The translations under genes were made by a program, and so were the position numbers. Shown here piece by piece: positions 1-8,217 of a DNA stretch of 64,000 nt. A model generated the notes under the pieces. It was not told where the DNA came from, ran no database searches, and saw only the letters and a list, made by a program, of their open reading frames with translations. Numbering within the stretch: position 1 is the first letter of the stretch; every line of letters begins with the position of its first letter. Source of the DNA: Winogradskyella sp. (GTDB lineage: Bacteria > Bacteroidota > Bacteroidia > Flavobacteriales > Flavobacteriaceae); the NCBI GenBank assembly GCA_002722255.1, contig PBLD01000001.1, positions 776,261 to 840,260 of the forward strand, given 5' to 3'.

Positions 1-1893
1 AATGTTCTTGTAACACCAGTCGAAGCTATGGCAGACTTGTCTTTAGAGAAAACGGTGGTTGATGATGATTTAATGCCATTAGTTGGTGAAGAGATCACTT
101 TCCAGATTACTGTGAGTAATGCTGGTCCTGATGCGGCTACTGGAGTTGAAGTGGTAGATCTATTGCCATCTGGATTTGATTTTATCTTATTCAGTGCAAC
201 GTCTGGTACTTATGATGAAACAACAGGACTTTGGACAGTTGGTACAATTGAAAGTGGCGAAACGCAGACCTTATTTGTTGATGTAATCGTCAATGAGCCA
301 ACAGGTGCAGCAAATGAATACTTGAATATTGCAGAAGTAACAGCAAGTAATGTTATTGATCCTAATAGTACACCTAACAATGACGATGGTGACCAGAGTG
401 AAAATGACGAAGACAATGTACTAGTAGTTCCAGTTGAAGCAATGGCCGACTTATCACTATCTAAAACTGTAGTTGATAATGATATTATGCCTAATGTAGG
501 CGATGAAATCACTTTCCAAATTACGGTGAGTAATGCTGGTCCTGATGCGGCTACTGGAGTAGAAGTAGTAGATTTACTTCCACCTGGATTTGACTTTATA
601 TTATTCAGTGCTACTTCGGGAACCTATAATGAGGTTACTGGATTATGGACCGTTGGTGATATTGAGAGTGGTGAATCCCAATCGTTGTTCATCGACGTTA
701 TCATCAATGAGCCAACTGGAGCAGATGGAGAATACTTTAATACTGCTCAAGTTACTGCTAGCGATGTTATTGATCCGAATAGTGATCCTAACAATGACGA
801 TGGTGACCAAAGTGAGGATGATGAAGATGGTATTTTAGTAATGACAGAGACTGCGGATTTAAGCTTAAACAAATCTGTAAGTAATGTAAATGCTAATGTT
901 GGTGAGGTAGTAACCTTTACACTTCTGATTAATAATGTTGGTACAGATACTGCAACAGGTGTTGCTGTAGAGGATATCTTACCGATTGGATATAGTAACA
1001 TCACCAATATAAGTAATGGTGGTATCCTAACAGGTAATATCATAGAGTGGATAAACTTAACAGTACCGTTAAGTGGCTTAACGTTAACTTATGAAGCTAC
1101 TGTAAATATCCCAACCCTTGAGGATGGCGAGTATGAGAATACTGCCGAAATCACTGCGAGTGACCAGTTTGATCCTAATAGTGATCCAGATAATGACGAT
1201 GGTGATCAAAGTGAAGACGATGAAGATAATGCCTCGATCAACACGCCAACAACTGATGTTGCTGTTGATAAGTCGGTTGACATAGAAAATCCTGGTATTG
1301 GAGATACTGTAGTATTTACAATAACTGCTTCGAATCAGGGTAACATAGCGGCCACTTCGGTTGAGATATTAGATTTATTACCATCTGGATATGAATTTGT
1401 GTCCTTTACAAGCACAGCAGGGACCTACGATAGTATATCAGGGCTTTGGACTATACCAATGATTGCACCAGGGACCACAGAGACTCTTGAAATTAGTGTT
1501 GTTGTTGTAGATATAGATGATTATGTTAATACAGCTAGTTTAGAGTATTTAGATCAGATAGATGATAATGGTAATAACGATGAGTCTAACGCGACTATTG
1601 AGCCTATTTGTTTGGTTATATACAGTGAATTTTCACCAAATGGGAATGGTTTAAATGAAACGTTTACTATAGATTGTATTGAAACTTTCCCAAATAATAC
1701 TTTAGAAATTTACAATAGATGGGGTAACCTAGTCTATAGTAAGGAAGGTTATGATAATACATTTGACGGAACATCTAATGGTAGGTCTGTATTTAATAAA
1801 AACGAAAAATTACCTGTAGGTACATATTATTATATACTTGATTTAGGTGATGGTACACCAAGATATTCTGGGTGGTTATACCTAATGCGATAA
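1..1893 (+). CDS. DUF11-repeat surface adhesin with type B T9SS C-terminal domain (5' partial)
   Basis: The reading frame is open from base 1, so the N-terminus and signal peptide lie outside the window. Four DUF11-type beta-sandwich repeats are visible (about 28-441, 442-852, 853-1248, 1249-1608). The first two are nearly identical, with NAGPDAATGVEVVDLLP in both. The first three end in an acidic DPNS-DDGDQSE-DDED stretch that looks calcium-binding. The last 90 residues carry the gliding-motility-associated (CHU_C, type B) sorting domain, with SPNGNGLNETF and IYNRWGNLVY. Proteins of this type are exported by the type IX secretion system and act at the cell surface as adhesins. The PorP/SprF and PorE-like genes directly downstream match the sprB-sprF type of arrangement. 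The adhesive role is inferred; the secretion domain is clear. Confidence 0.9.
   Translation, partial: NVLVTPVEAMADLSLEKTVVDDDLMPLVGEEITFQITVSNAGPDAATGVEVVDLLPSGFDFILFSATSGTYDETTGLWTVGTIESGETQTLFVDVIVNEPTGAANEYLNIAEVTASNVIDPNSTPNNDDGDQSENDEDNVLVVPVEAMADLSLSKTVVDNDIMPNVGDEITFQITVSNAGPDAATGVEVVDLLPPGFDFILFSATSGTYNEVTGLWTVGDIESGESQSLFIDVIINEPTGADGEYFNTAQVTASDVIDPNSDPNNDDGDQSEDDEDGILVMTETADLSLNKSVSNVNANVGEVVTFTLLINNVGTDTATGVAVEDILPIGYSNITNISNGGILTGNIIEWINLTVPLSGLTLTYEATVNIPTLEDGEYENTAEITASDQFDPNSDPDNDDGDQSEDDEDNASINTPTTDVAVDKSVDIENPGIGDTVVFTITASNQGNIAATSVEILDLLPSGYEFVSFTSTAGTYDSISGLWTIPMIAPGTTETLEISVVVVDIDDYVNTASLEYLDQIDDNGNNDESNATIEPICLVIYSEFSPNGNGLNETFTIDCIETFPNNTLEIYNRWGNLVYSKEGYDNTFDGTSNGRSVFNKNEKLPVGTYYYILDLGDGTPRYSGWLYLMR
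28..852 (+). repeat. Two tandem near-identical DUF11 units, about 410 bp each
   Basis: Units 28-441 and 442-about 852 encode the same 138-residue module with few substitutions; many differences between them are synonymous. Units 3 and 4 (to about 1608) are much more diverged. Recent duplication within the gene, or recombination between units, would explain the pattern, and copy number may vary between strains. Confidence 0.85.
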
Positions 1894-1942
1894 TACAATG
1901 AACATAAATAAGATTATATACCTCAAACATAAAAATGATAAG

Positions 1943-2860
1943 ATGAAATATAAAATTCAAATAGTAATTGGTATTATACTCACGCTATTAAGTTATGACG
2001 GTAGTGCACAGCAAGATCCTCAGTATACACAGTATATGTATAATACAATGAATGTTAATCCTGCATATACTGGTTCAAGAGGTCATCTTGCAGTAACAGG
2101 TTATCATAGGACACAATGGGTTGGATTGGATGGTGCTCCCACAACACAAGCACTGACAATAGAGTCACCAGTAGGTAAAAATGTTGGGCTTGGTTTATCT
2201 TTTGTAAATGATAGACTTGGACCATCAGACGAGTTCTATTTTGATGCTAATTTCTCCTATACTTTAAAATTGAACAATGGTCGTAGATTGTCTTTTGGGC
2301 TTAAAGGTGGTGGTAGAATGCTAAATATAGATTGGTCACGAGGGACGTTTCAGAGCAGCGAGGATGTGTTTCAAAATAATATTAGAAACAAATTCTTACC
2401 GACCGTAGGAGCTGGTATTTATCTGCATGGAGACAAAAGCTATATTGGATTTTCAGTGCCAAACTTTTTAACTAACGAACACTATGATGAAGTACAAAAT
2501 TCTGTAGCAGCAGAGCGTTTACATTTTCATCTTATAGGTGGTAAAGTTTGGGATTTGAGTGAAAACACACAGTTTATGCCTGCTGTTTTAGGAAAGTTTG
2601 TGGTAGGTGCGCCTGTAATAGTAGACTTATCCGCAAACTTTATGTTTGATGAATCACTTAGGTTAGGTGTAGCTTACAGGTGGGACGATTCTGTAAGTGG
2701 ATTAATAGGCTTACAAATAAGCCCTAAATTATTAATATCATATTCTTATGATTACACCACAACACCATTGCAAGATTTTAATTCTGGTACGCACGATATC
2801 ATGCTTCGCTTTGAGTTGAGATCTAAAGAAAGAAAATTAAAATCACCTCGCTTCTTCTAA
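1943..2860 (+). CDS. PorP/SprF family type IX secretion system membrane protein
   Basis: This is an outer-membrane beta-barrel of the PorP/SprF family. It has an N-terminal signal peptide ending in GSAQ, then the family hallmark QDPQYTQYMYN and NPAYTGSRG, and glycine/aromatic strands to the end. SprF-like proteins are needed for secretion and surface attachment of type B-domain adhesins, so this protein very probably serves the adhesin encoded directly upstream. An earlier ATG at 1898 would add 15 charged residues before the signal peptide. The ATG at 1943 gives a normal short n-region and is preferred. The gene lies about 50 bp after the adhesin and 13 bp before the OmpA-like gene, so the three are probably co-transcribed. 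Confidence 0.9.
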   Translation: MKYKIQIVIGIILTLLSYDGSAQQDPQYTQYMYNTMNVNPAYTGSRGHLAVTGYHRTQWVGLDGAPTTQALTIESPVGKNVGLGLSFVNDRLGPSDEFYFDANFSYTLKLNNGRRLSFGLKGGGRMLNIDWSRGTFQSSEDVFQNNIRNKFLPTVGAGIYLHGDKSYIGFSVPNFLTNEHYDEVQNSVAAERLHFHLIGGKVWDLSENTQFMPAVLGKFVVGAPVIVDLSANFMFDESLRLGVAYRWDDSVSGLIGLQISPKLLISYSYDYTTTPLQDFNSGTHDIMLRFELRSKERKLKSPRFF

Positions 2861-2873
2861 AAATCTAGATAAA

Positions 2874-4880
2874 ATGAAAAACATTACTACAATAATATTA
2901 CTCTTGTTAGTTGGTCTTTCTTATGGACAGACTGATAATTATACAAAAGCCGATAAGTTGTTTGATAGACTATGGTACAAAGAAGCTGCCCAACTTTACG
3001 AAAGAGAGTTAAAGAAAGAGAAAAACTATAGTGCAGATCTTTTAAAGAAAGCTGGGGATGCTTATTTCTTTAATACAGATATGAAAAACGCAAACAAATG
3101 GTATGATGCCTTAATTTCTGATTTTGGAGATGAGATTGAGCCAGAATATTTTTTTAGATATGCACATAGTTTACAAGGTATAGGAGAATATAGACAAGCT
3201 AAACGTTGGATGAAAGAATTTTCAAAAAGAACGAAAGCCGATGATAACAGAGCTAAACATTTTGATCAGATTAATGAGACGATAGAAGATGTTCTTAACA
3301 TAGAAGGGGAATTCACCTTAAAGAATGTAAAAGTTAATACGAAGTATTCAGATTTTGGAGTCATGTATTATAAAGACCAACTTGTATATTCTTCTGCTGT
3401 AGATTCATCTAATTTTCATACAAGAATTTACCATTGGAATGAGCAACCTTTTTTAAATATGTATTTAGGAAAATTAAATACTTCAGAATCAGATGTTTCT
3501 AAAATCAAAGAATTTTCAGATAAATTAAATACAAAATATCACGAGGCAACACTAGCATTTTCTCCAGACTATAAAATGGTGTATTTCACAAGAAACAATT
3601 ATAATGGAGATCTTGGAAGAGATGAAGATGGTACAAACCACCTTAAATTGTATAGTGCAGAAATTCGAAAAGATGAAAAGAAAAATGATAGTACTTATAA
3701 TTGGTATAATATAAAAGAATTGCCTTTTAATAGTGAAGATTATTCTGTAGGCCATCCTACGATTAGTGAAGATGGTAAGAAGTTATACTTTGTTTCAGAC
3801 ATGCCAGGTTCTGTTGGTGCAACAGATATTTTTGTAGTAGATATACTAAAGTACAAAGAAGGAGAAACTAAAGATTCAACAGGCTATTCTATACCTCGAA
3901 ACTTAGGAGCTACTATAAATACACCAGGACGCGAAATGTTTCCTTACATAACCGGTAATGAATTATACTTTGCCTCAGATGGTCATTTAGGACTAGGTGG
4001 ATTAGACGTGTTTCATAGTAGAAAAGAAGACGACATGTTTACTAATCCTATAAACCTAGGAGCACCACTTAATAGTAAATTAGATGACTTTAACTTTATA
4101 ATAAAAGAAGAATTAAACACTGGATTTGTATGTTCTAACCGTGAAGGAGGTAAGGGAGATGATGATATTTATTCTTTTGTGCGAATTCCAAATCCGCAAA
4201 GACTTGCAGAGCAGAATTGTGAGCAAAAAGTGAGAGGGTTTGTTTCTAATAGTGTAACAGGAGAACGTATCTCAAATGTAGAGGTGAAGCTTTTTGATAA
4301 AAACAATGTTGAGATAGAGTCTACTACTACAGATATAAATGGTGCATATAAGTTTAATACTGTGGTAAATTGCGACATGCCTTTTAAAGTTGCCTGTTCT
4401 AAGACTGGTTATAAACCACGGGATAAAGATTTTAAAACACTTAATGAAAATGGTGAAACAGTTGTGGCACTTGGTTTAGATACGCTTAATGAATTAATTG
4501 TAGAAGAAGGCGGAAAGCTTAAGATTAAAATAGGGATTATTTATTTTGATTTAGATAAATCATATATCCGTAAAAACGATGCTGCTATAGAACTAAACAA
4601 GATTGTTCTTCTGATGAATGAGTATCCTAATATGGTTATACAAATAGAATCCCACACCGATGCCAGAAACACAGATAGCTACAATATGGAGTTGTCTGAT
4701 CGTAGAGCAAAATCTACAAGAGATTATATTATAAGTCAAGGCATTGCAGCGGATAGAATAGAAAGTGCAAAAGGATTTGGAGAAAGTCAGTTGATCAACC
4801 GTTGTTCTAATGGTGTACCGTGTACAGAAGCAGAGCATCAAATGAACAGACGTAGTGAATTTATAATCGTAAAAATGTAA
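2874..4880 (+). CDS. PorE-like OmpA family protein (TPR, PD40 propeller, CRD, OmpA)
   Basis: The 668-residue protein has the domain order known from PorE of the type IX secretion system. A signal peptide (cleaved near SYGQ) is followed by a TPR-like helical region (about 25-140), then PD40/WD40-like propeller blades (about 150-430; TLAFSPDYKMVYFTRN, GKKLYFVSD, ELYFASDGH). A carboxypeptidase-regulatory-like beta-sandwich follows (about 450-540; VRGFVSNSVTGERISNVEV), and an OmpA peptidoglycan-binding domain closes the protein (about 550-668; FDLDKSYI, HTDARNTDSYNMELSDRRA). It probably links the secretion machinery or the adhesin's outer-membrane partner to peptidoglycan. It is the last gene of the adhesin-SprF-OmpA cluster. 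A bidirectional terminator follows at about 4972. Confidence 0.88.
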   Translation: MKNITTIILLLLVGLSYGQTDNYTKADKLFDRLWYKEAAQLYERELKKEKNYSADLLKKAGDAYFFNTDMKNANKWYDALISDFGDEIEPEYFFRYAHSLQGIGEYRQAKRWMKEFSKRTKADDNRAKHFDQINETIEDVLNIEGEFTLKNVKVNTKYSDFGVMYYKDQLVYSSAVDSSNFHTRIYHWNEQPFLNMYLGKLNTSESDVSKIKEFSDKLNTKYHEATLAFSPDYKMVYFTRNNYNGDLGRDEDGTNHLKLYSAEIRKDEKKNDSTYNWYNIKELPFNSEDYSVGHPTISEDGKKLYFVSDMPGSVGATDIFVVDILKYKEGETKDSTGYSIPRNLGATINTPGREMFPYITGNELYFASDGHLGLGGLDVFHSRKEDDMFTNPINLGAPLNSKLDDFNFIIKEELNTGFVCSNREGGKGDDDIYSFVRIPNPQRLAEQNCEQKVRGFVSNSVTGERISNVEVKLFDKNNVEIESTTTDINGAYKFNTVVNCDMPFKVACSKTGYKPRDKDFKTLNENGETVVALGLDTLNELIVEEGGKLKIKIGIIYFDLDKSYIRKNDAAIELNKIVLLMNEYPNMVIQIESHTDARNTDSYNMELSDRRAKSTRDYIISQGIAADRIESAKGFGESQLINRCSNGVPCTEAEHQMNRRSEFIIVKM

Positions 4881-4971
4881 TTACTACAAATTAAATGCTA
4901 AAGAGTTGTAGTTAAGATTTAATTCGGTCAGATTTTAAACTAATAAGAATTATTAGCAGTTAAACTACAAG

Positions 4972-5004
4972 AAAAATAAGCGAACTTTTAGTTCGCTTAT
5001 TTTT
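4972..5004. terminator. Bidirectional rho-independent terminator
   Basis: A perfect 14-bp inverted repeat (AAAAATAAGCGAAC, loop TTTTA, GTTCGCTTATTTTT) has A and T tracts on both sides. It lies between the convergent OmpA-like gene and the histidine kinase gene. The kinase's stop codon (4997-4999) lies inside the right arm. Confidence 0.85.
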
Positions 5005-6508
5005 TTAGGTATTTATAAAGTTTATCTAGAATATCCTCTTTGTTAAAAGGCTTAGCAATAACATCTTTTATGCCTGCCTCTTTAAAACGTTTTATATCTT
5101 CTTTAAATACTTCTGTACTCAATGCTAATACAGGGATTCTTTTAAATTGCCTAGGAAGTGATTTAATATTTTTGGTGATAGTTTCAGCAGAAAATTTTTG
5201 AATGGTATTAGATACAATAATTAAATCTGGTTTTATATTTTTTACATATTCAACGACATCTTCTCCATTAGATACAATATTTAAAAAAAAATTGCCATCG
5301 GAAGATAAAATTTTGAGAATTGAAAGCTGTATTAGCTCAGAATCTTCAATAAGTAATATCGCTTTTTTTTCTGTTAGTTTGGGGTATTCTTTTGTTTTAG
5401 ATACAGTGAGTTTTTTTTGAGTTGAAATCTTAAGACTAAGATTACAAACAAATTTTGAACCTTTGTCTATTTCACTATCCACTGAGATTCTACCTCCCAT
5501 CTGCTCAGATAAATGTTTAACTATAGATAGACCCAAACCAAAATTTCTATCACTTAGGTTGCTAAGGCTATTAAATCTGTCAAAAATAACTTCGTGGTAT
5601 TTTTTATCTATGCCTATTCCAGTATCAATAACTTCTATGTTAATGTTAACTTTTTGTGCTCTTGTAAAGTTTTTATAGATATTGAGGTTAATCTCTCCAC
5701 TAGAAGTATAACTTAACGCATTACGCAATAGATTACCTAATATCTGTTCTATTCTGTAAGGATCTGCATATATAAATTCTGGTATTTCAGGGTCTACATA
5801 ATGTAGAAACTCAATTTGCTTTCTGTTACATAGAATTCTAAAGTTACTTTTTATCTCTTCGATAAACTCTCTAAAATTGAAGGTGTGCTCTCTAAGGACT
5901 AATTTTCCAGATTCTATCTTAGAAAGTTCTAGCATATCATCAACTCTATTTTTTAAACTTCTTGAAGCTGATGAAATAATATCTATATAATTTTTTTGCT
6001 CTGAGGTGAGATCAGTTTCGCTCAATATTTCACTAAAAACCGTTGTCATTGTAATTGGATTACGCAACTGATGACTAAAATTGGATAAAAATTTTGTTTT
6101 AAATGCTTCTTTTTCTTTAATATGTTTATTACTTAATTCTAAGTATTGAGAATTTATTATAAATTCATTTCTTATTTGTGCTGCACGTTGGTATTCATTA
6201 TAGTGATCTGTTAGATTTTCTAGTGTTATATAACCATATCCAGATTTATACGACGTATCTAATTTAATATCTAGGATAAATGCTGTTTCGGATGTTTCTA
6301 TATTTATACACGAGAATTCAAAAGTTTCGTTTTCTAATGAAAAAAGGTCTTCAAGCGATTCAAAAAAAGGATGCGCTTCTTGAATGGATGTAATACCTTT
6401 ACAAGCAATAATAGTTTGATTATCGTACTCTATAATTTTGCCAGAAGAATTAACTAAGATGTACTGAAGATTCTTTTTTGAATGATCGTTTTTATAAGCT
6501 GAAAGCAT
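4997..6508 (-). CDS. Hybrid histidine kinase with degenerate receiver domain
   Basis: The protein is soluble (503 residues, no membrane segment). An N-terminal PAS-like sensor (about 10-110) is followed by HisKA with the phospho-acceptor His146 in FSHQLRNPI, and then an HATPase domain with N-box (259-263), DTGIGI (295-300) and GLGLSIVKHL. The C-terminal receiver (about 382-503) keeps the acid pair Glu388/Asp389, Thr465 and Lys486. The phospho-acceptor Asp is replaced by Ser433, in PDLIIVSNT where PDLIIMD is usual. The receiver is therefore probably not phosphorylated and may serve as a docking or allosteric module. It is the last gene of a four-gene operon, 12 bp after the Ras-like GTPase gene, which suggests a link between the GTPase and phosphorelay signalling (inference). 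Confidence 0.88.
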   Translation of the reverse strand: MLSAYKNDHSKKNLQYILVNSSGKIIEYDNQTIIACKGITSIQEAHPFFESLEDLFSLENETFEFSCINIETSETAFILDIKLDTSYKSGYGYITLENLTDHYNEYQRAAQIRNEFIINSQYLELSNKHIKEKEAFKTKFLSNFSHQLRNPITMTTVFSEILSETDLTSEQKNYIDIISSASRSLKNRVDDMLELSKIESGKLVLREHTFNFREFIEEIKSNFRILCNRKQIEFLHYVDPEIPEFIYADPYRIEQILGNLLRNALSYTSSGEINLNIYKNFTRAQKVNINIEVIDTGIGIDKKYHEVIFDRFNSLSNLSDRNFGLGLSIVKHLSEQMGGRISVDSEIDKGSKFVCNLSLKISTQKKLTVSKTKEYPKLTEKKAILLIEDSELIQLSILKILSSDGNFFLNIVSNGEDVVEYVKNIKPDLIIVSNTIQKFSAETITKNIKSLPRQFKRIPVLALSTEVFKEDIKRFKEAGIKDVIAKPFNKEDILDKLYKYLKK

Positions 6509-6520
6509 GTTTTGTACTTT

Positions 6521-7009
6521 TTATACCAGTTCTTTTGCTAATTTAGAGAAAAGAGTATCAACTCTACTTCCTGATTTGGCACTTGTAAAAAAATCGACAT
6601 AACGTTCAAAAACATCTGCATACTGCACTAATTGAGGCTTTAAAACTAAGTCGCGCTTATTTCCAACAACTTTTATAGGGATATTTTGAAACGTTTCTTC
6701 TAAATAATTAATATCGTTTGCTAAATTTTCAAAAGTAGCAGGTCGTGATAAATCAAATGCATAGATAATACCGCTAACTCCCATCATATAAGAAGCTCTC
6801 ATGGCTCTAATATCATCTTGCCCTTCGAGGTCCCAAATTATTAATGCTATTGAGGTGCCATCTTCTAGTATTACAGTTTTTTTAGAAATATGTACACCAA
6901 TGGTAGCCTTATAATCTTCAGAAAAGGTACCTTCAACAAAACGTCTTATCAATGAAGATTTTCCTACACCGAAGTGACCAGCCAAAACAATTTTTTTTGT
7001 TAATGACAT
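6521..7009 (-). CDS. Ras-like (Rab/Roc-type) small GTPase
   Basis: The 162-residue protein is a complete small GTPase domain. It has P-loop G1 GHFGVGKS (11-18), G2 Thr36, G3 WDLEGQ (59-64, keeping the catalytic Gln64), G4 NKRD (117-120) and G5 SAK (143-145). It has no membrane anchor or lipidation signal. The residue matching Ras Gly12 is Phe13, which in Ras-type enzymes would be expected to hinder an arginine finger. It belongs among the prokaryotic Ras-superfamily proteins, several of which (such as MglA) control polarity and motility. Its start codon lies one base after the stop of the roadblock-like gene, so the two are translationally linked and probably interact. The substrate is GTP; the cellular output is unknown. 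Confidence 0.9.
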   Translation of the reverse strand: MSLTKKIVLAGHFGVGKSSLIRRFVEGTFSEDYKATIGVHISKKTVILEDGTSIALIIWDLEGQDDIRAMRASYMMGVSGIIYAFDLSRPATFENLANDINYLEETFQNIPIKVVGNKRDLVLKPQLVQYADVFERYVDFFTSAKSGSRVDTLFSKLAKELV

Positions 7010-7010
7010 A

Positions 7011-7814
7011 TTAAAAAAGATGCTTTAGTTTGTTGGATACTAATGTTTTATCGTTAAGTATATTTTGGTTTAGTTGTAATTGTACAAAGTCATATAAACG
7101 ATCTTCTAATTTGTCTCTAAATAAAATATTGTATGCGCCAGAAATTGCAGCAGCAATATAAAATGAAGAGAAATTTTGAATATGTATGTGGTAATGATCA
7201 TATTCTATATATGTTAAATCCTGATTTTCTTTTTTAAAAGCATCTTGAGCGAAACTTTTAATAGCTGTTAGCATACCTGCAACCATATCCTCGTCTGTCA
7301 TTTTTTCTTTCGAATATTCTCCAAGAACTAAACCAGAGCCTTTTTCAATAACAATGACTTGCTCTATTTTAGGACTTAGTTGGTTCTTAAGTATATGATC
7401 GGCAGAGCTTACGCCTTTAATATTCGATTTTTTTCTTTGAAAAAATCTTTTGAAAGAAAAGGTCTTATTAAATTGCTCATTTACACGTTCAGATAATAAC
7501 TTTATTTCGTGCTGCACATAGCGTTTTATCATTTTTCCCATAATTGGAAATAAAGCTTCAACCACAGCGTCTTGGGAATTTTTGATTTCTTCTTTTAGGG
7601 CTTCGGTAATGGTTGGACCTAGATTTTCAGGTATATCTTTAACAAAGGCTTTTAATTTTGAATCTATAATAGGGTCAACCTTTTCTGAGAGTTTACCTTG
7701 TTGATTAATTATAGATTCTAAATGTGAAAGTTTTTCTTCGATAGAAGACGCAAATTCTCTTTCATCTGTAAGAAGAATATCTTTGATGATGTTTAATTTT
7801 TCGTCTTGATTCAT
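7011..7814 (-). CDS. Roadblock/longin-like regulatory protein of the GTPase operon
   Basis: The 267-residue protein has a helical N-terminal half (about 1-120) that contains DAVVEALFPIMGKMIKRYV. A basic linker (120-133) follows, and then an alpha/beta domain (about 148-240) with strands EQVIVIEKGSGLVLGEYS and IEYDHYHIHIQNF around a long helix starting at DEDMVAGMLTAI. This strand-helix-strand pattern resembles roadblock/LC7 or longin-type folds, which are common partners of small GTPases such as MglB with MglA. The ALFPIMG and IEKGSGL-type segments are also known from larger OmpA-family proteins of other phyla, from memory, so automated labels of OmpA may appear although no OmpA domain is present here. 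It lies between the coiled-coil gene and the GTPase gene. The fold assignment is inference. Confidence 0.6.
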   Translation of the reverse strand: MNQDEKLNIIKDILLTDEREFASSIEEKLSHLESIINQQGKLSEKVDPIIDSKLKAFVKDIPENLGPTITEALKEEIKNSQDAVVEALFPIMGKMIKRYVQHEIKLLSERVNEQFNKTFSFKRFFQRKKSNIKGVSSADHILKNQLSPKIEQVIVIEKGSGLVLGEYSKEKMTDEDMVAGMLTAIKSFAQDAFKKENQDLTYIEYDHYHIHIQNFSSFYIAAAISGAYNILFRDKLEDRLYDFVQLQLNQNILNDKTLVSNKLKHLF

Positions 7815-7827
7815 TAGAATACTATAA

Positions 7828-8184
7828 TTATTCTTTTAGCTTTTCGCTAAGATTCATAAATAAATCTGAAAGCATATTTCGACTTACTTTTTTGTCGTCT
7901 AGTTTCTCCAATTTAGAATTTATAGTGTCTTCTAAATCTGTTATTCTAATGTTTAGATCTGTGTCTAATGAATCCAAACTTTTAGATAATTCTGACTTTA
8001 CATCGTCAATTAAGTTTTCTAACTCAGCTTTTTTATCTAAAATATCTTTCTTAATCTTAAAAAATTCAGAATCATAAGCCTGAATGTTTTCTCCAAAGAT
8101 AAGCTCCTTAATAGCGTCGATTTTGGAGTTTGTGTCCTTGTCGCTTCCATTTAGATTAGCAATCTGTTTTTCTTGTTTTGCCAT
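7828..8184 (-). CDS. Small coiled-coil protein, first gene of the GTPase operon
   Basis: The 118-residue protein is highly charged and almost wholly predicted coiled coil. Heptad-like spacing is seen in DIRITDLEDTINSKLEKLDDKK-type stretches (about residues 45-105). It has no signal peptide, membrane segment or recognisable domain. It lies 13 bp upstream of the roadblock-like gene on the same strand, and a good promoter element (TACCTTTG) lies 25 bp upstream of its start, so it opens the operon. It may act as an oligomerisation or scaffold subunit for the GTPase system. That role is inferred only from position and composition. Confidence 0.7.
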   Translation of the reverse strand: MAKQEKQIANLNGSDKDTNSKIDAIKELIFGENIQAYDSEFFKIKKDILDKKAELENLIDDVKSELSKSLDSLDTDLNIRITDLEDTINSKLEKLDDKKVSRNMLSDLFMNLSEKLKE

Positions 8185-8209: not shown

Positions 8210-8217
8210 CAAAGGTA
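8210..8217 (-). promoter_or_regulatory. -7 promoter element of the GTPase operon
   Basis: The minus strand reads TACCTTTG, a perfect match to the Bacteroidota -7 consensus TANNTTTG, 25 bp upstream of the first start codon (8184). No good -33 TTG lies at the usual distance. Confidence 0.6.

What the first reader, a model, noticed from the sequence alone, without database searches (positions are those of the whole stretch)
4997..8184. Four-gene Ras-like GTPase module ending in a histidine kinase
Coiled-coil protein, roadblock/longin-like protein, Ras-like GTPase and hybrid histidine kinase are encoded with gaps of 13, 1 and 12 bp under one good promoter. GTPase plus roadblock-type partner recalls MglA/MglB polarity control, but here the module also carries a phosphorelay kinase without a response regulator. 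This could be a bacterial small-GTPase signalling circuit that couples nucleotide state to kinase output. Its neighbour is a gliding-type adhesin cluster, which makes a motility or polarity role worth asking about.
Basis: partly seen in the sequence, partly recalled or inferred. Interest (0 to 1): 0.75.

Follow-up and report, generated by a model that had tools for sequence, protein, structure and literature searches.

The report
Bacterial Rab-like GTPase–longin–kinase operon
Four neighbouring genes encode a bacterial switch protein related to the Ras/Rab proteins of our own cells, a partner predicted to fold like the longin domains found in regulators of those proteins, a coiled-coil protein and a sensor kinase; this gene set was already on record, but the longin reading of the partner appears to be new.

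Summary
In detail: four minus-strand genes, gaps 13, 1 and 12 bp, found together in 87 of 87 loci examined. It is not an MglA/MglB system. It matches the "Group 1 Rup" neighbourhood of Wuichet and Søgaard-Andersen (PMC4316618): Ras/Rab-like GTPase, coiled-coil protein, "unknown domain" protein, and output protein with an invariant glutamine. A Nostoc plasmid has the same order.

New here: (1) two AlphaFold2 models (the better, of a homologue, pLDDT 80.6) give the unknown domain a longin fold (Sec22b Z 13.7, AP sigma 13.6), as in eukaryotic Rab exchange factors; sequence-level support is weak. (2) Distant homologues carry a membrane helix and OmpA domain; the flavobacterial form lacks both. (3) Outputs include sigma-54 activators. 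(4) In the window's clade the GTPase mostly has the catalytic Gln that Group 1 Rup was said to lack, and the kinase's receiver has lost its phosphoacceptor Asp.

Most likely the longin protein loads or scaffolds the GTPase, which gates the kinase; binding and direction are inferred. A gliding role is unsupported: GldJ is over cut-off in 143 of 149 family genomes, the longin gene in 32.

The parts
7828..8184 (-). CC: 118-aa coiled-coil protein with N-terminal motif IKELIFGENIQAYDSEF
   Evidence: ORF; weak helical-family Pfam hits only; found in all 87 loci; Nostoc counterpart 218 aa
7011..7814 (-). 267-aa longin-domain protein (the 'domain of unknown function' protein of Group 1 Rup neighbourhoods), short form without TM helix and OmpA
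7014..7415 (-). Longin domain, residues 134-267 (b-b-a-b-b-b-a-a)
   Evidence: AF2 of the whole window protein, mean pLDDT 55, 9 of 13 ten-residue blocks from residue 141 at 75-84 or close, the others 45-64; AF2 of the same region of homologue L085, pLDDT 80.6, pTM 0.75; fold searches
7416..7814 (-). N-terminal helical region, residues 1-133 (low-confidence model)
   Evidence: block pLDDT 35-48 in residues 1-140
6521..7009 (-). Rup/Rab-like small GTPase, 162 aa, G1 GHFGVGKS, NKRD, SAK; no cysteine in the last ten residues, so no prenylation-type tail
   Evidence: Pfam Ras 6.6e-31; best PDB sequence match Rab-1A E 1.8e-22; motifs; C-terminus; only match at E<=0.001 in its genome
6818..6832 (-). 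G3 motif DLEGQ with the Ras-type catalytic Gln (residue 64)
   Evidence: Gln in 15 of 87 rows (two of them the window's own genome); all Gln rows of the tree in one clade of 16, support 100/96
4997..6508 (-). Hybrid histidine kinase, 503 aa; no hydrophobic stretch of TM strength (max KD19 1.45, inside the receiver)
   Evidence: Pfam HisKA, HATPase_c, Response_reg; H146 and ATPase-box residues invariant in the 30 rows of A2; hydropathy
6119..6508 (-). N-terminal domain of the kinase (about residues 1-130; PAS-like by eye, not modelled, no Pfam PAS hit)
   Evidence: shared with sigma-54 activators and the Nostoc kinase
6176..6178 (-). Gln111 of the kinase N-terminal domain, the likely counterpart of the published invariant Gln
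   Evidence: Gln in 19 of the 20 rows that have a residue there (Ser in L119_solo; L138 gapped)
5210..5212 (-). Ser433 in place of the receiver phosphoacceptor Asp
   Evidence: PDLIIVS in the window; Asp kept in 63 of 87 kinase rows
8210..8217 (-). Candidate Bacteroidota -7 box TACCTTTG, 33 nt upstream of the first start codon
   Evidence: consensus recalled
4970..5006 (.). Terminator-like hairpin readable on both strands, overlapping the end of the kinase gene
   Evidence: 3 terminator-like sites in the region, 0.9 expected in shuffles

Best explanation
This is a short, apparently soluble flavobacterial variant of the Group 1 Rup module: a Ras/Rab-like GTPase switch coupled to a histidine kinase. 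The 267-aa protein is most likely the regulator or platform of the GTPase. Its C-terminal domain has the predicted longin fold used by eukaryotic Rab exchange factors and platforms such as Mon1-Ccz1 and TRAPP. It probably binds the GTPase as a dimer, helped by its helical N-terminal half and the coiled-coil protein, and promotes nucleotide exchange or holds the GTPase in place. The GTPase in its GTP state then probably binds the N-terminal domain shared by the output proteins of these modules (kinase here, sigma-54 activator or other kinases elsewhere) and switches the output. Shown: gene set, order, conservation, homology of the 267-aa protein to the unknown-domain proteins with OmpA, a shared output N-terminal domain with its Gln, loss of the receiver Asp. 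Predicted: the longin fold. Inferred: that longin and GTPase bind each other, that the longin protein is an exchange factor rather than a GAP or scaffold, and that information flows from GTPase to kinase.
For: Published description of the same four-gene neighbourhood for Group 1 Rup. All four genes in 87 of 87 loci and again in 29 of 29 of the same genomes re-fetched with longer flanks; same order on a Nostoc plasmid. A GTPase match in 11 of 11 genomes outside the family that were searched because they have the longin protein. Longin fold: (pLDDT 80.6, pTM 0.75); best Z 13.7 (Sec22b, rmsd 2.5 A, 116 aligned), 13.6 (AP sigma 4p6z_S), Ykt6 11.5, Mon1-Ccz1 11.2; best Foldseek E 5.2e-5; a first model on a different sequence, (best E 4.0e-5, best Z 12.3). 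Weak sequence hint: Fuz_longin_1 (longin of FUZ, MON1, HPS1) E 0.0012 on L130. The same N-terminal domain with Gln111 sits on kinases and on sigma-54 activators, which points to the GTPase as the upstream part and the output as exchangeable.
Against: No interaction was tested; structure prediction took single chains only. Longin sequence signal is weak: 2 of 47 members hit a longin Pfam model at E<=0.1, at a level where 64 families in all were hit; 3 of 3 consensus sequences hit none; the profile found no longin among PDB sequences. The whole-protein model of the window's own protein had mean pLDDT 55; the better model is of a homologue. Longin domains also act in SNAREs and coats without being exchange factors. 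The operon is not universal: of 13 distant Bacteroidota loci, three (L135, L136, L141) have no GTPase nearby, it being on another contig, and in four (L134, L139, L140, L142) GTPase and kinase genes run opposite to the longin gene; L142 has no coiled-coil gene by the profile. The window GTPase has the G3 Gln that Group 1 Rup was described as lacking. The module is patchy: 3 of 37 genomes of the same genus.
Confidence: 0.62

Rival explanations
1. The kinase is upstream and the GTPase is the output, as proposed for actinobacterial conservons: kinase and longin protein together set the nucleotide state of the GTPase, whose own targets lie elsewhere in the cell.
For: No response regulator gene lies in the unit and the receiver of the kinase has lost its phosphoacceptor Asp in this clade. 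The published authors posit GTPase output for conservons, which lack a response regulator.
Against: The same N-terminal domain with its Gln is found on sigma-54 activators, which are outputs, and the paper reports diguanylate cyclase/phosphodiesterase outputs. The genome has 28 receiver-domain matches, this kinase's own included, so partners for phosphotransfer exist elsewhere.
Confidence: 0.22
2. The kinase N-terminal domain supplies a catalytic Gln in trans (a GAP), as the 2014 authors speculated; the longin protein is a scaffold only.
For: Gln111 conserved in 19 of 20 alignable rows; most relatives lack the G3 Gln (72 of 87 rows).
Against: In the window clade the GTPase has its own Gln while Gln111 is still conserved, so Gln111 would be redundant there. 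No structure of the complex.
Confidence: 0.25
3. The unit is a polarity or gliding regulator of the MglA/MglB type.
For: Roadblock and longin folds are related, and MglC and MglB appear lower in the Foldseek list (E 2.5e-3 and 2.8e-3). An adhesin/SprF/OmpA cluster lies next door.
Against: No Robl_LC7 match in the genome; longin matches rank above roadblocks; the adhesin cluster adjoins in 4 of 85 relatives' loci; the longin gene is in 32 of 149 family genomes, GldJ over cut-off in 143 of 149.
Confidence: 0.07
4. The C-terminal domain only resembles a longin by convergence within the PAS/profilin-like alpha-beta folds and has nothing to do with GTPase control.
For: Weak or absent sequence similarity; middling Z values are common for small domains (note).
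Against: Two models on different sequences give the same family at the top, Z up to 13.7 over nearly the whole domain, and the domain goes with a Rab-like GTPase.
Confidence: 0.12

Closest known systems
Group 1 Rup GTPase neighbourhood (Wuichet and Søgaard-Andersen, PMC4316618; sections 17 and 18 and found passages read)
   Same: Rab/Ras-like small GTPase, coiled-coil protein, conserved-domain protein, output protein with an invariant N-terminal Gln; reported from Bacteroidetes and, among others, Nostoc.
   Different: Longin protein lacks the TM helix and OmpA domain; G3 Gln present in the window GTPase; receiver of the kinase is a pseudo-receiver; the unknown domain is here assigned a predicted longin fold; sigma-54 activators seen as outputs.
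Eukaryotic longin-based Rab exchange factors (Mon1-Ccz1, TRAPP, Fuzzy-Inturned, BLOC-3)
   Same: Longin fold beside a Rab-like GTPase.
   Different: One longin per chain and no DENN domain recognised by Pfam; bacterial operon with a kinase; exchange activity untested.
MglA/MglB of Myxococcus xanthus
   Same: Small GTPase plus a partner of the roadblock/longin superfamily.
   Different: GTPase has the G3 Asp of the Rup/eukaryotic type; partner is longin-like, and no Robl_LC7 match was found in the genome.
Actinobacterial conservons (CvnA-D)
   Same: Four genes: kinase, fold-related partner, a protein of unknown function, small GTPase.
   Different: Conservon kinase is membrane-bound with HAMP, CvnB is an MglB homologue, CvnD is MglA-type.

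Membership tests
Group 1 Rup module | Small (<240 aa) Ras-superfamily GTPase with G3 Asp, unlike MglA | tested here: met
   162 aa, Ras 6.6e-31, WDLEG; closest PDB sequence Rab-1A
Group 1 Rup module | Neighbourhood of coiled coil + conserved-domain protein + GTPase + output protein | tested here: met
   87 of 87 loci; Nostoc plasmid
Group 1 Rup module | Output protein with an invariant Gln in its N-terminal region | tested here: met
   Gln111, 19 of 20 alignable rows; that this is the same Gln as in the paper's logo is inferred, figure not seen
Group 1 Rup module | Conserved-domain protein often with TM helix and OmpA ('often', so not required) | tested here: not met
   Window 267 aa, no hydrophobic stretch above KD19 1.08, no OmpA. 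OmpA in 9 of 47 homologues (count only); nine of the 47 are long and carry a hydrophobic stretch, presumably the same nine. Homology by profile E 1.6e-13 to 6e-46 outside the class
Group 1 Rup module | G3 Gln absent (described trait; the groups were defined by tree, taxonomy and neighbourhood) | tested here: not met
   DLEGQ in the window; Gln in 15 of 87 rows, absent in 72
Group 1 Rup module | Placement inside the published Group 1 clade | tested here: inconclusive
   Tree of 68 rows includes one Nostoc and other Bacteroidota but not the published set, MglA or eukaryotic GTPases
Longin domain | b-b-a-b-b-b-a-a fold with two C-terminal helices | tested here: met
   matches (predicted models, not a solved structure)
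Longin domain | Curated sequence-family match | tested here: inconclusive
   2 of 47 members hit Fuz_longin_1 at E<=0.1, best 0.0012, below cut-off, among 64 families hit at that level; window none; consensus 0 of 3
Rab exchange factor | Catalysed GDP release from the partner GTPase | not testable with these tools
   needs biochemistry
MglA/MglB | Roadblock (Robl_LC7) partner | tested here: not met
   0 matches at E<=0.001 in the genome, 83.9% complete; no Pfam hit on the 267-aa protein
Hybrid (phosphorelay) histidine kinase | Receiver with phosphoacceptor Asp | tested here: not met
   Ser433; kinase H-box and ATP-binding residues kept
Actinobacterial conservon | MglA-type GTPase, MglB homologue, membrane-bound kinase | tested here: not met
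   feature list

The most novel reading that the evidence does not exclude
Bacteria carry, in one operon, both halves of the Rab switch: a Rab-like GTPase and a true longin-domain regulator homologous to the Mon1-Ccz1/Fuzzy type. The Rab-longin partnership would then be older than eukaryotes and not confined to archaea, and here it controls a two-component output instead of membrane traffic.
Probability: 0.33. Interest if true: 0.86.

Novelty: new variant of a known kind. Interest (0 to 1): 0.64.

Why it matters
[quoted passage not shown] If their conserved partner is a longin domain, the regulator-GTPase pairing of eukaryotic Rabs has a bacterial counterpart that can be purified and tested. 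[quoted passage not shown] The short flavobacterial version, with no membrane segment apparent in any of the four proteins, should be an easy one to purify.

Tried and rejected
MglA/MglB membership: rejected. Roadblock fold for the 267-aa protein: less likely than longin, since the two C-terminal helices are well predicted (blocks 80-84) and longins lead both lists; roadblock proteins (Ragulator chains, MglB, MglC) do appear, MglB and MglC lower down, and none of MglA/MglB/MglC is among the 50 rows shown by VIA-align. Motility link: rejected as unsupported.

Longin by sequence alone: failed or weak. The two PDB sequence hits of the profile were dethiobiotin synthetases at E 0.31 and 0.37, taken as chance.

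Independent statistical link between G3 Gln and loss of the receiver Asp: not claimed. Of the 90 rows I set aside three without a kinase H-box (L134, L137, L140; all three have Asp). In the other 87, all 14 Gln rows have Ser, Ala or Thr for Asp, none of the 63 Asp rows has Gln, and 10 rows have neither Asp nor Gln (five of these Lys). The Gln rows fall in one clade of 16 (most Aquimarina rows were left out of that tree), so this may be one event. Some loci are the same contig fetched twice, judged by equal contig lengths (L003 and L101 with L037, L082/L107, L084/L103), and were not removed from the counts.

Promoter claim: not supported.

Literature: ten searches. 'longin' with 'bacterial longin' returned 0 papers; 'longin domain' with 'Bacteroidetes' and 'GTPase' 0. 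The library holds open-licence papers only; De Franceschi 2014 (seen only in a reference list) and Levine 2013 (recalled) were not read and may bear on bacterial longins.
Full report
What is there. The window (contig G000:C1 of a genome 83.9% complete; its closest relatives here are Flavobacteriaceae) carries four minus-strand genes at 8184-4997: a 118-aa coiled-coil protein, a 267-aa protein, a 162-aa GTPase and a 503-aa hybrid histidine kinase, with gaps of 13, 1 and 12 bp. Pfam gives Ras for the GTPase (6.6e-31), HisKA, HATPase_c and Response_reg for the kinase, nothing for the 267-aa protein, and only weak hits for the 118-aa protein. The best PDB sequence match of the GTPase is Rab-1A (E 1.8e-22), and it is the only match at E<=0.001 in its genome. 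None of the four proteins has a hydrophobic stretch of membrane strength (highest KD19 1.45, in the receiver of the kinase).

Conservation. The 267-aa protein was found in 32 of 149 genomes of the family, one genome per genus; two of the 32 are fragments, one with an internal stop. It was found in 3 of 37 genomes of the same genus, the window's included, so the distribution is patchy. A contig scan gave 56 loci. In all 87 loci then held, the four genes occur together; the 29 genome-search loci re-fetched with longer flanks agree, 29 of 29. In many genomes the unit sits in a fixed chromosomal place: four neighbour families recur in 57 to 61 of 86 loci, 23 to 27 of them outside the block of loci that I set apart as Aquimarina (from their sequences I read them as aspartate kinase, an acetyltransferase, fructose-bisphosphatase and a TerB-like protein, with no database check). 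The window's neighbours are others. The adhesin/SprF/OmpA cluster next to it in the window adjoins the module in 4 of 85 relatives' loci (L034, L038, L087, L102).

Known kind. Wuichet and Søgaard-Andersen (PMC4316618; I read sections 17 and 18 and found passages) describe Group 1 Rup GTPases in neighbourhoods with a coiled-coil protein, a protein with a conserved unknown domain often followed by a membrane helix and OmpA, and an output protein (typically a diguanylate cyclase/phosphodiesterase or a histidine kinase) with an invariant N-terminal Gln. Their Table 1 has no Rup coupled to MglB. The window's unit matches. The profile of the 267-aa protein found 14 of 395 genomes of the phylum; outside the class the match lies in open frames of 598-738 codons. 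In a set of 47 homologues nine are long and have a strong hydrophobic stretch starting at residues 298-362 (KD19 1.88-2.64); nine of the 47 have OmpA (which gives the count only; by name in L133, L137 and L142 of this set). The other 38 are 267-291 aa; their highest KD19 is 1.71 (L130, inside the longin region), the rest 1.30 or less. A Nostoc plasmid has coiled coil (218 aa), longin protein (763 aa, OmpA), GTPase (174 aa) and kinase in the same order. All 11 genomes outside the family that I searched for it have a GTPase match. The arrangement varies there: among 13 distant loci from 12 genomes, three (L135, L136, L141) have the GTPase on another contig, and in four (L134, L139, L140, L142) GTPase and kinase run opposite to the longin gene.

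The unknown domain is a predicted longin. AlphaFold2 on the window protein gave a poor N-terminal half and a C-terminal domain of order b-b-a-b-b-b-a-a (mean pLDDT 55; most C-terminal blocks 75-84, the central helix about 45-54). Foldseek against the PDB put AP sigma, zeta-COP, Mon1-Ccz1 and Rag/Ragulator chains on top (best E 4.0e-5), and VIA-align gave Z 12.3 (COPI leaf), 11.5 (Mon1-Ccz1) and 11.4 (AP sigma). A second prediction, on the same region of homologue L085 with 56 rows, reached pLDDT 80.6 and pTM 0.75. Its best Z is 13.7 to the Sec22b N-terminal domain (116 residues, 2.5 A), 13.6 to AP sigma, 12.0 to Vamp7, 11.5 to Ykt6 and to Fuzzy-Inturned, 11.2 to Mon1-Ccz1; as I recall, all 50 listed chains are longins or contain one, one of them archaeal and, by their titles, none bacterial. 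Roadblock proteins come lower in Foldseek (MglC 2.5e-3, MglB 2.8e-3). Sequence support is weak: Fuz_longin_1 (FUZ, MON1, HPS1) hits L130 at 0.0012 and Intu_longin_1 at 0.05, both below cut-off; 2 of 47 members hit Fuz_longin_1 at E<=0.1, where 64 families in all are hit; three consensus sequences hit no longin model; the profile finds no longin among PDB sequences.

Output proteins. Downstream of the GTPase stand histidine kinases or, in L131 and L133, sigma-54 activators. An alignment of 21 N-terminal domains shows Gln111 of the window kinase conserved in 19 of the 20 rows with a residue there; L119_solo has Ser and L138 is gapped. In L116-L119 a kinase-less copy of this domain (139-200 aa) sits in the unit, in three of them with a second GTPase. 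That one domain is fused to different outputs, or stands alone, suggests it is the part that reads the GTPase. By eye it looks PAS-like; I did not model it.

Window-clade peculiarities. The GTPase has DLEGQ, the Ras-type Gln; 15 of 87 rows have Gln there, the rest His 38, Asn 16, Thr 11, Phe 3, Ser 2, Tyr 1, Leu 1. In the tree of 68 rows the Gln rows lie in one clade of 16 (support 100/96), which also holds Tyr, Leu and His. In all 16 the receiver phosphoacceptor Asp of the kinase is Ser, Ala or Thr, whereas 63 of 87 kinase rows keep Asp; a separate set of five has Lys, and L124 has Ser outside the clade. The kinase H-box and ATP-binding residues are invariant in 30 aligned rows. So the window kinase is probably active but cannot pass phosphate to its own receiver in the usual way; the genome has 28 receiver matches, this one included.

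How it may work. Longin protein binds and loads or holds the GTPase; GTP-bound GTPase binds the kinase N-terminal domain and changes kinase activity; phosphate goes to a separate receiver. Only the anatomy is shown. The conservon-like rival (GTPase as output) and the GAP-in-trans rival (Gln111) are open. A gliding role has little support: GldJ is over cut-off in 143 of 149 family genomes, the longin gene is in 32 of 149.

Novelty. The module is a known kind, so I file it as a new variant. What I did not find in print (open-licence library only) is a longin domain tied to a bacterial Rup GTPase. A 2012 paper derives longins from MglB-type roadblocks (PMC3521125, passages); a 2024 Asgard paper treats longins in Asgard archaea and roadblocks in bacteria (PMC10933270, passages); a 2016 review's Table 1 marks the joint row 'Longin/Roadblock' as present in bacteria (PMC4917890, passages), so a bacterial longin may have been noted by others in papers I could not read.

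Noticed in passing
window 8184-7828 and 7814-7011; L143:4554-5210 and 5233-7524: The coiled-coil protein and the longin protein share an N-terminal motif like [IL][RK]x[IL][IL]xG.[EQ] (window IKELIFGEN and IKDILLTDE; Nostoc IRDIILGTQ and LREILVGYE). hhalign of the two alignments: 36 columns, E 0.0012, probability 19%. They may dock to the same partner.
   Followed up: partly
L116, L117, L118, L119: In four genera the unit holds a kinase-less copy of the output N-terminal domain (139-200 aa), in three of them (L116-L118) with a duplicated GTPase gene (G3 DLEGF plus DIEGN or DLEGN).
   Followed up: partly
L104 6357-7883 and L106 2405-3940: A second, similar kinase gene lies directly after the module's kinase.
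   Followed up: no
window 28-4880 (+): Adhesin-like protein with four DUF11 domains and a CHU_C type IX secretion signal, PorP/SprF protein, and an OmpA/PD40 protein; the cluster converges on the module and shares a terminator-like hairpin at 4970-5006 readable on both strands.
   Followed up: no
L131 and L133 (outputs at 2902-4656 and 2895-4679, minus strand): Sigma-54 activators with the shared N-terminal domain follow the GTPase; the longin proteins there also carry BON domains before OmpA. The paper text I read names c-di-GMP enzymes and kinases as the typical outputs.
   Followed up: partly
window 7014-7009: In 69 of 87 rows the GTPase start overlaps the end of the longin gene by 14 bases, pointing to translational coupling; in the window the longin gene ends earlier and the gap is 1 bp.
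   Followed up: no
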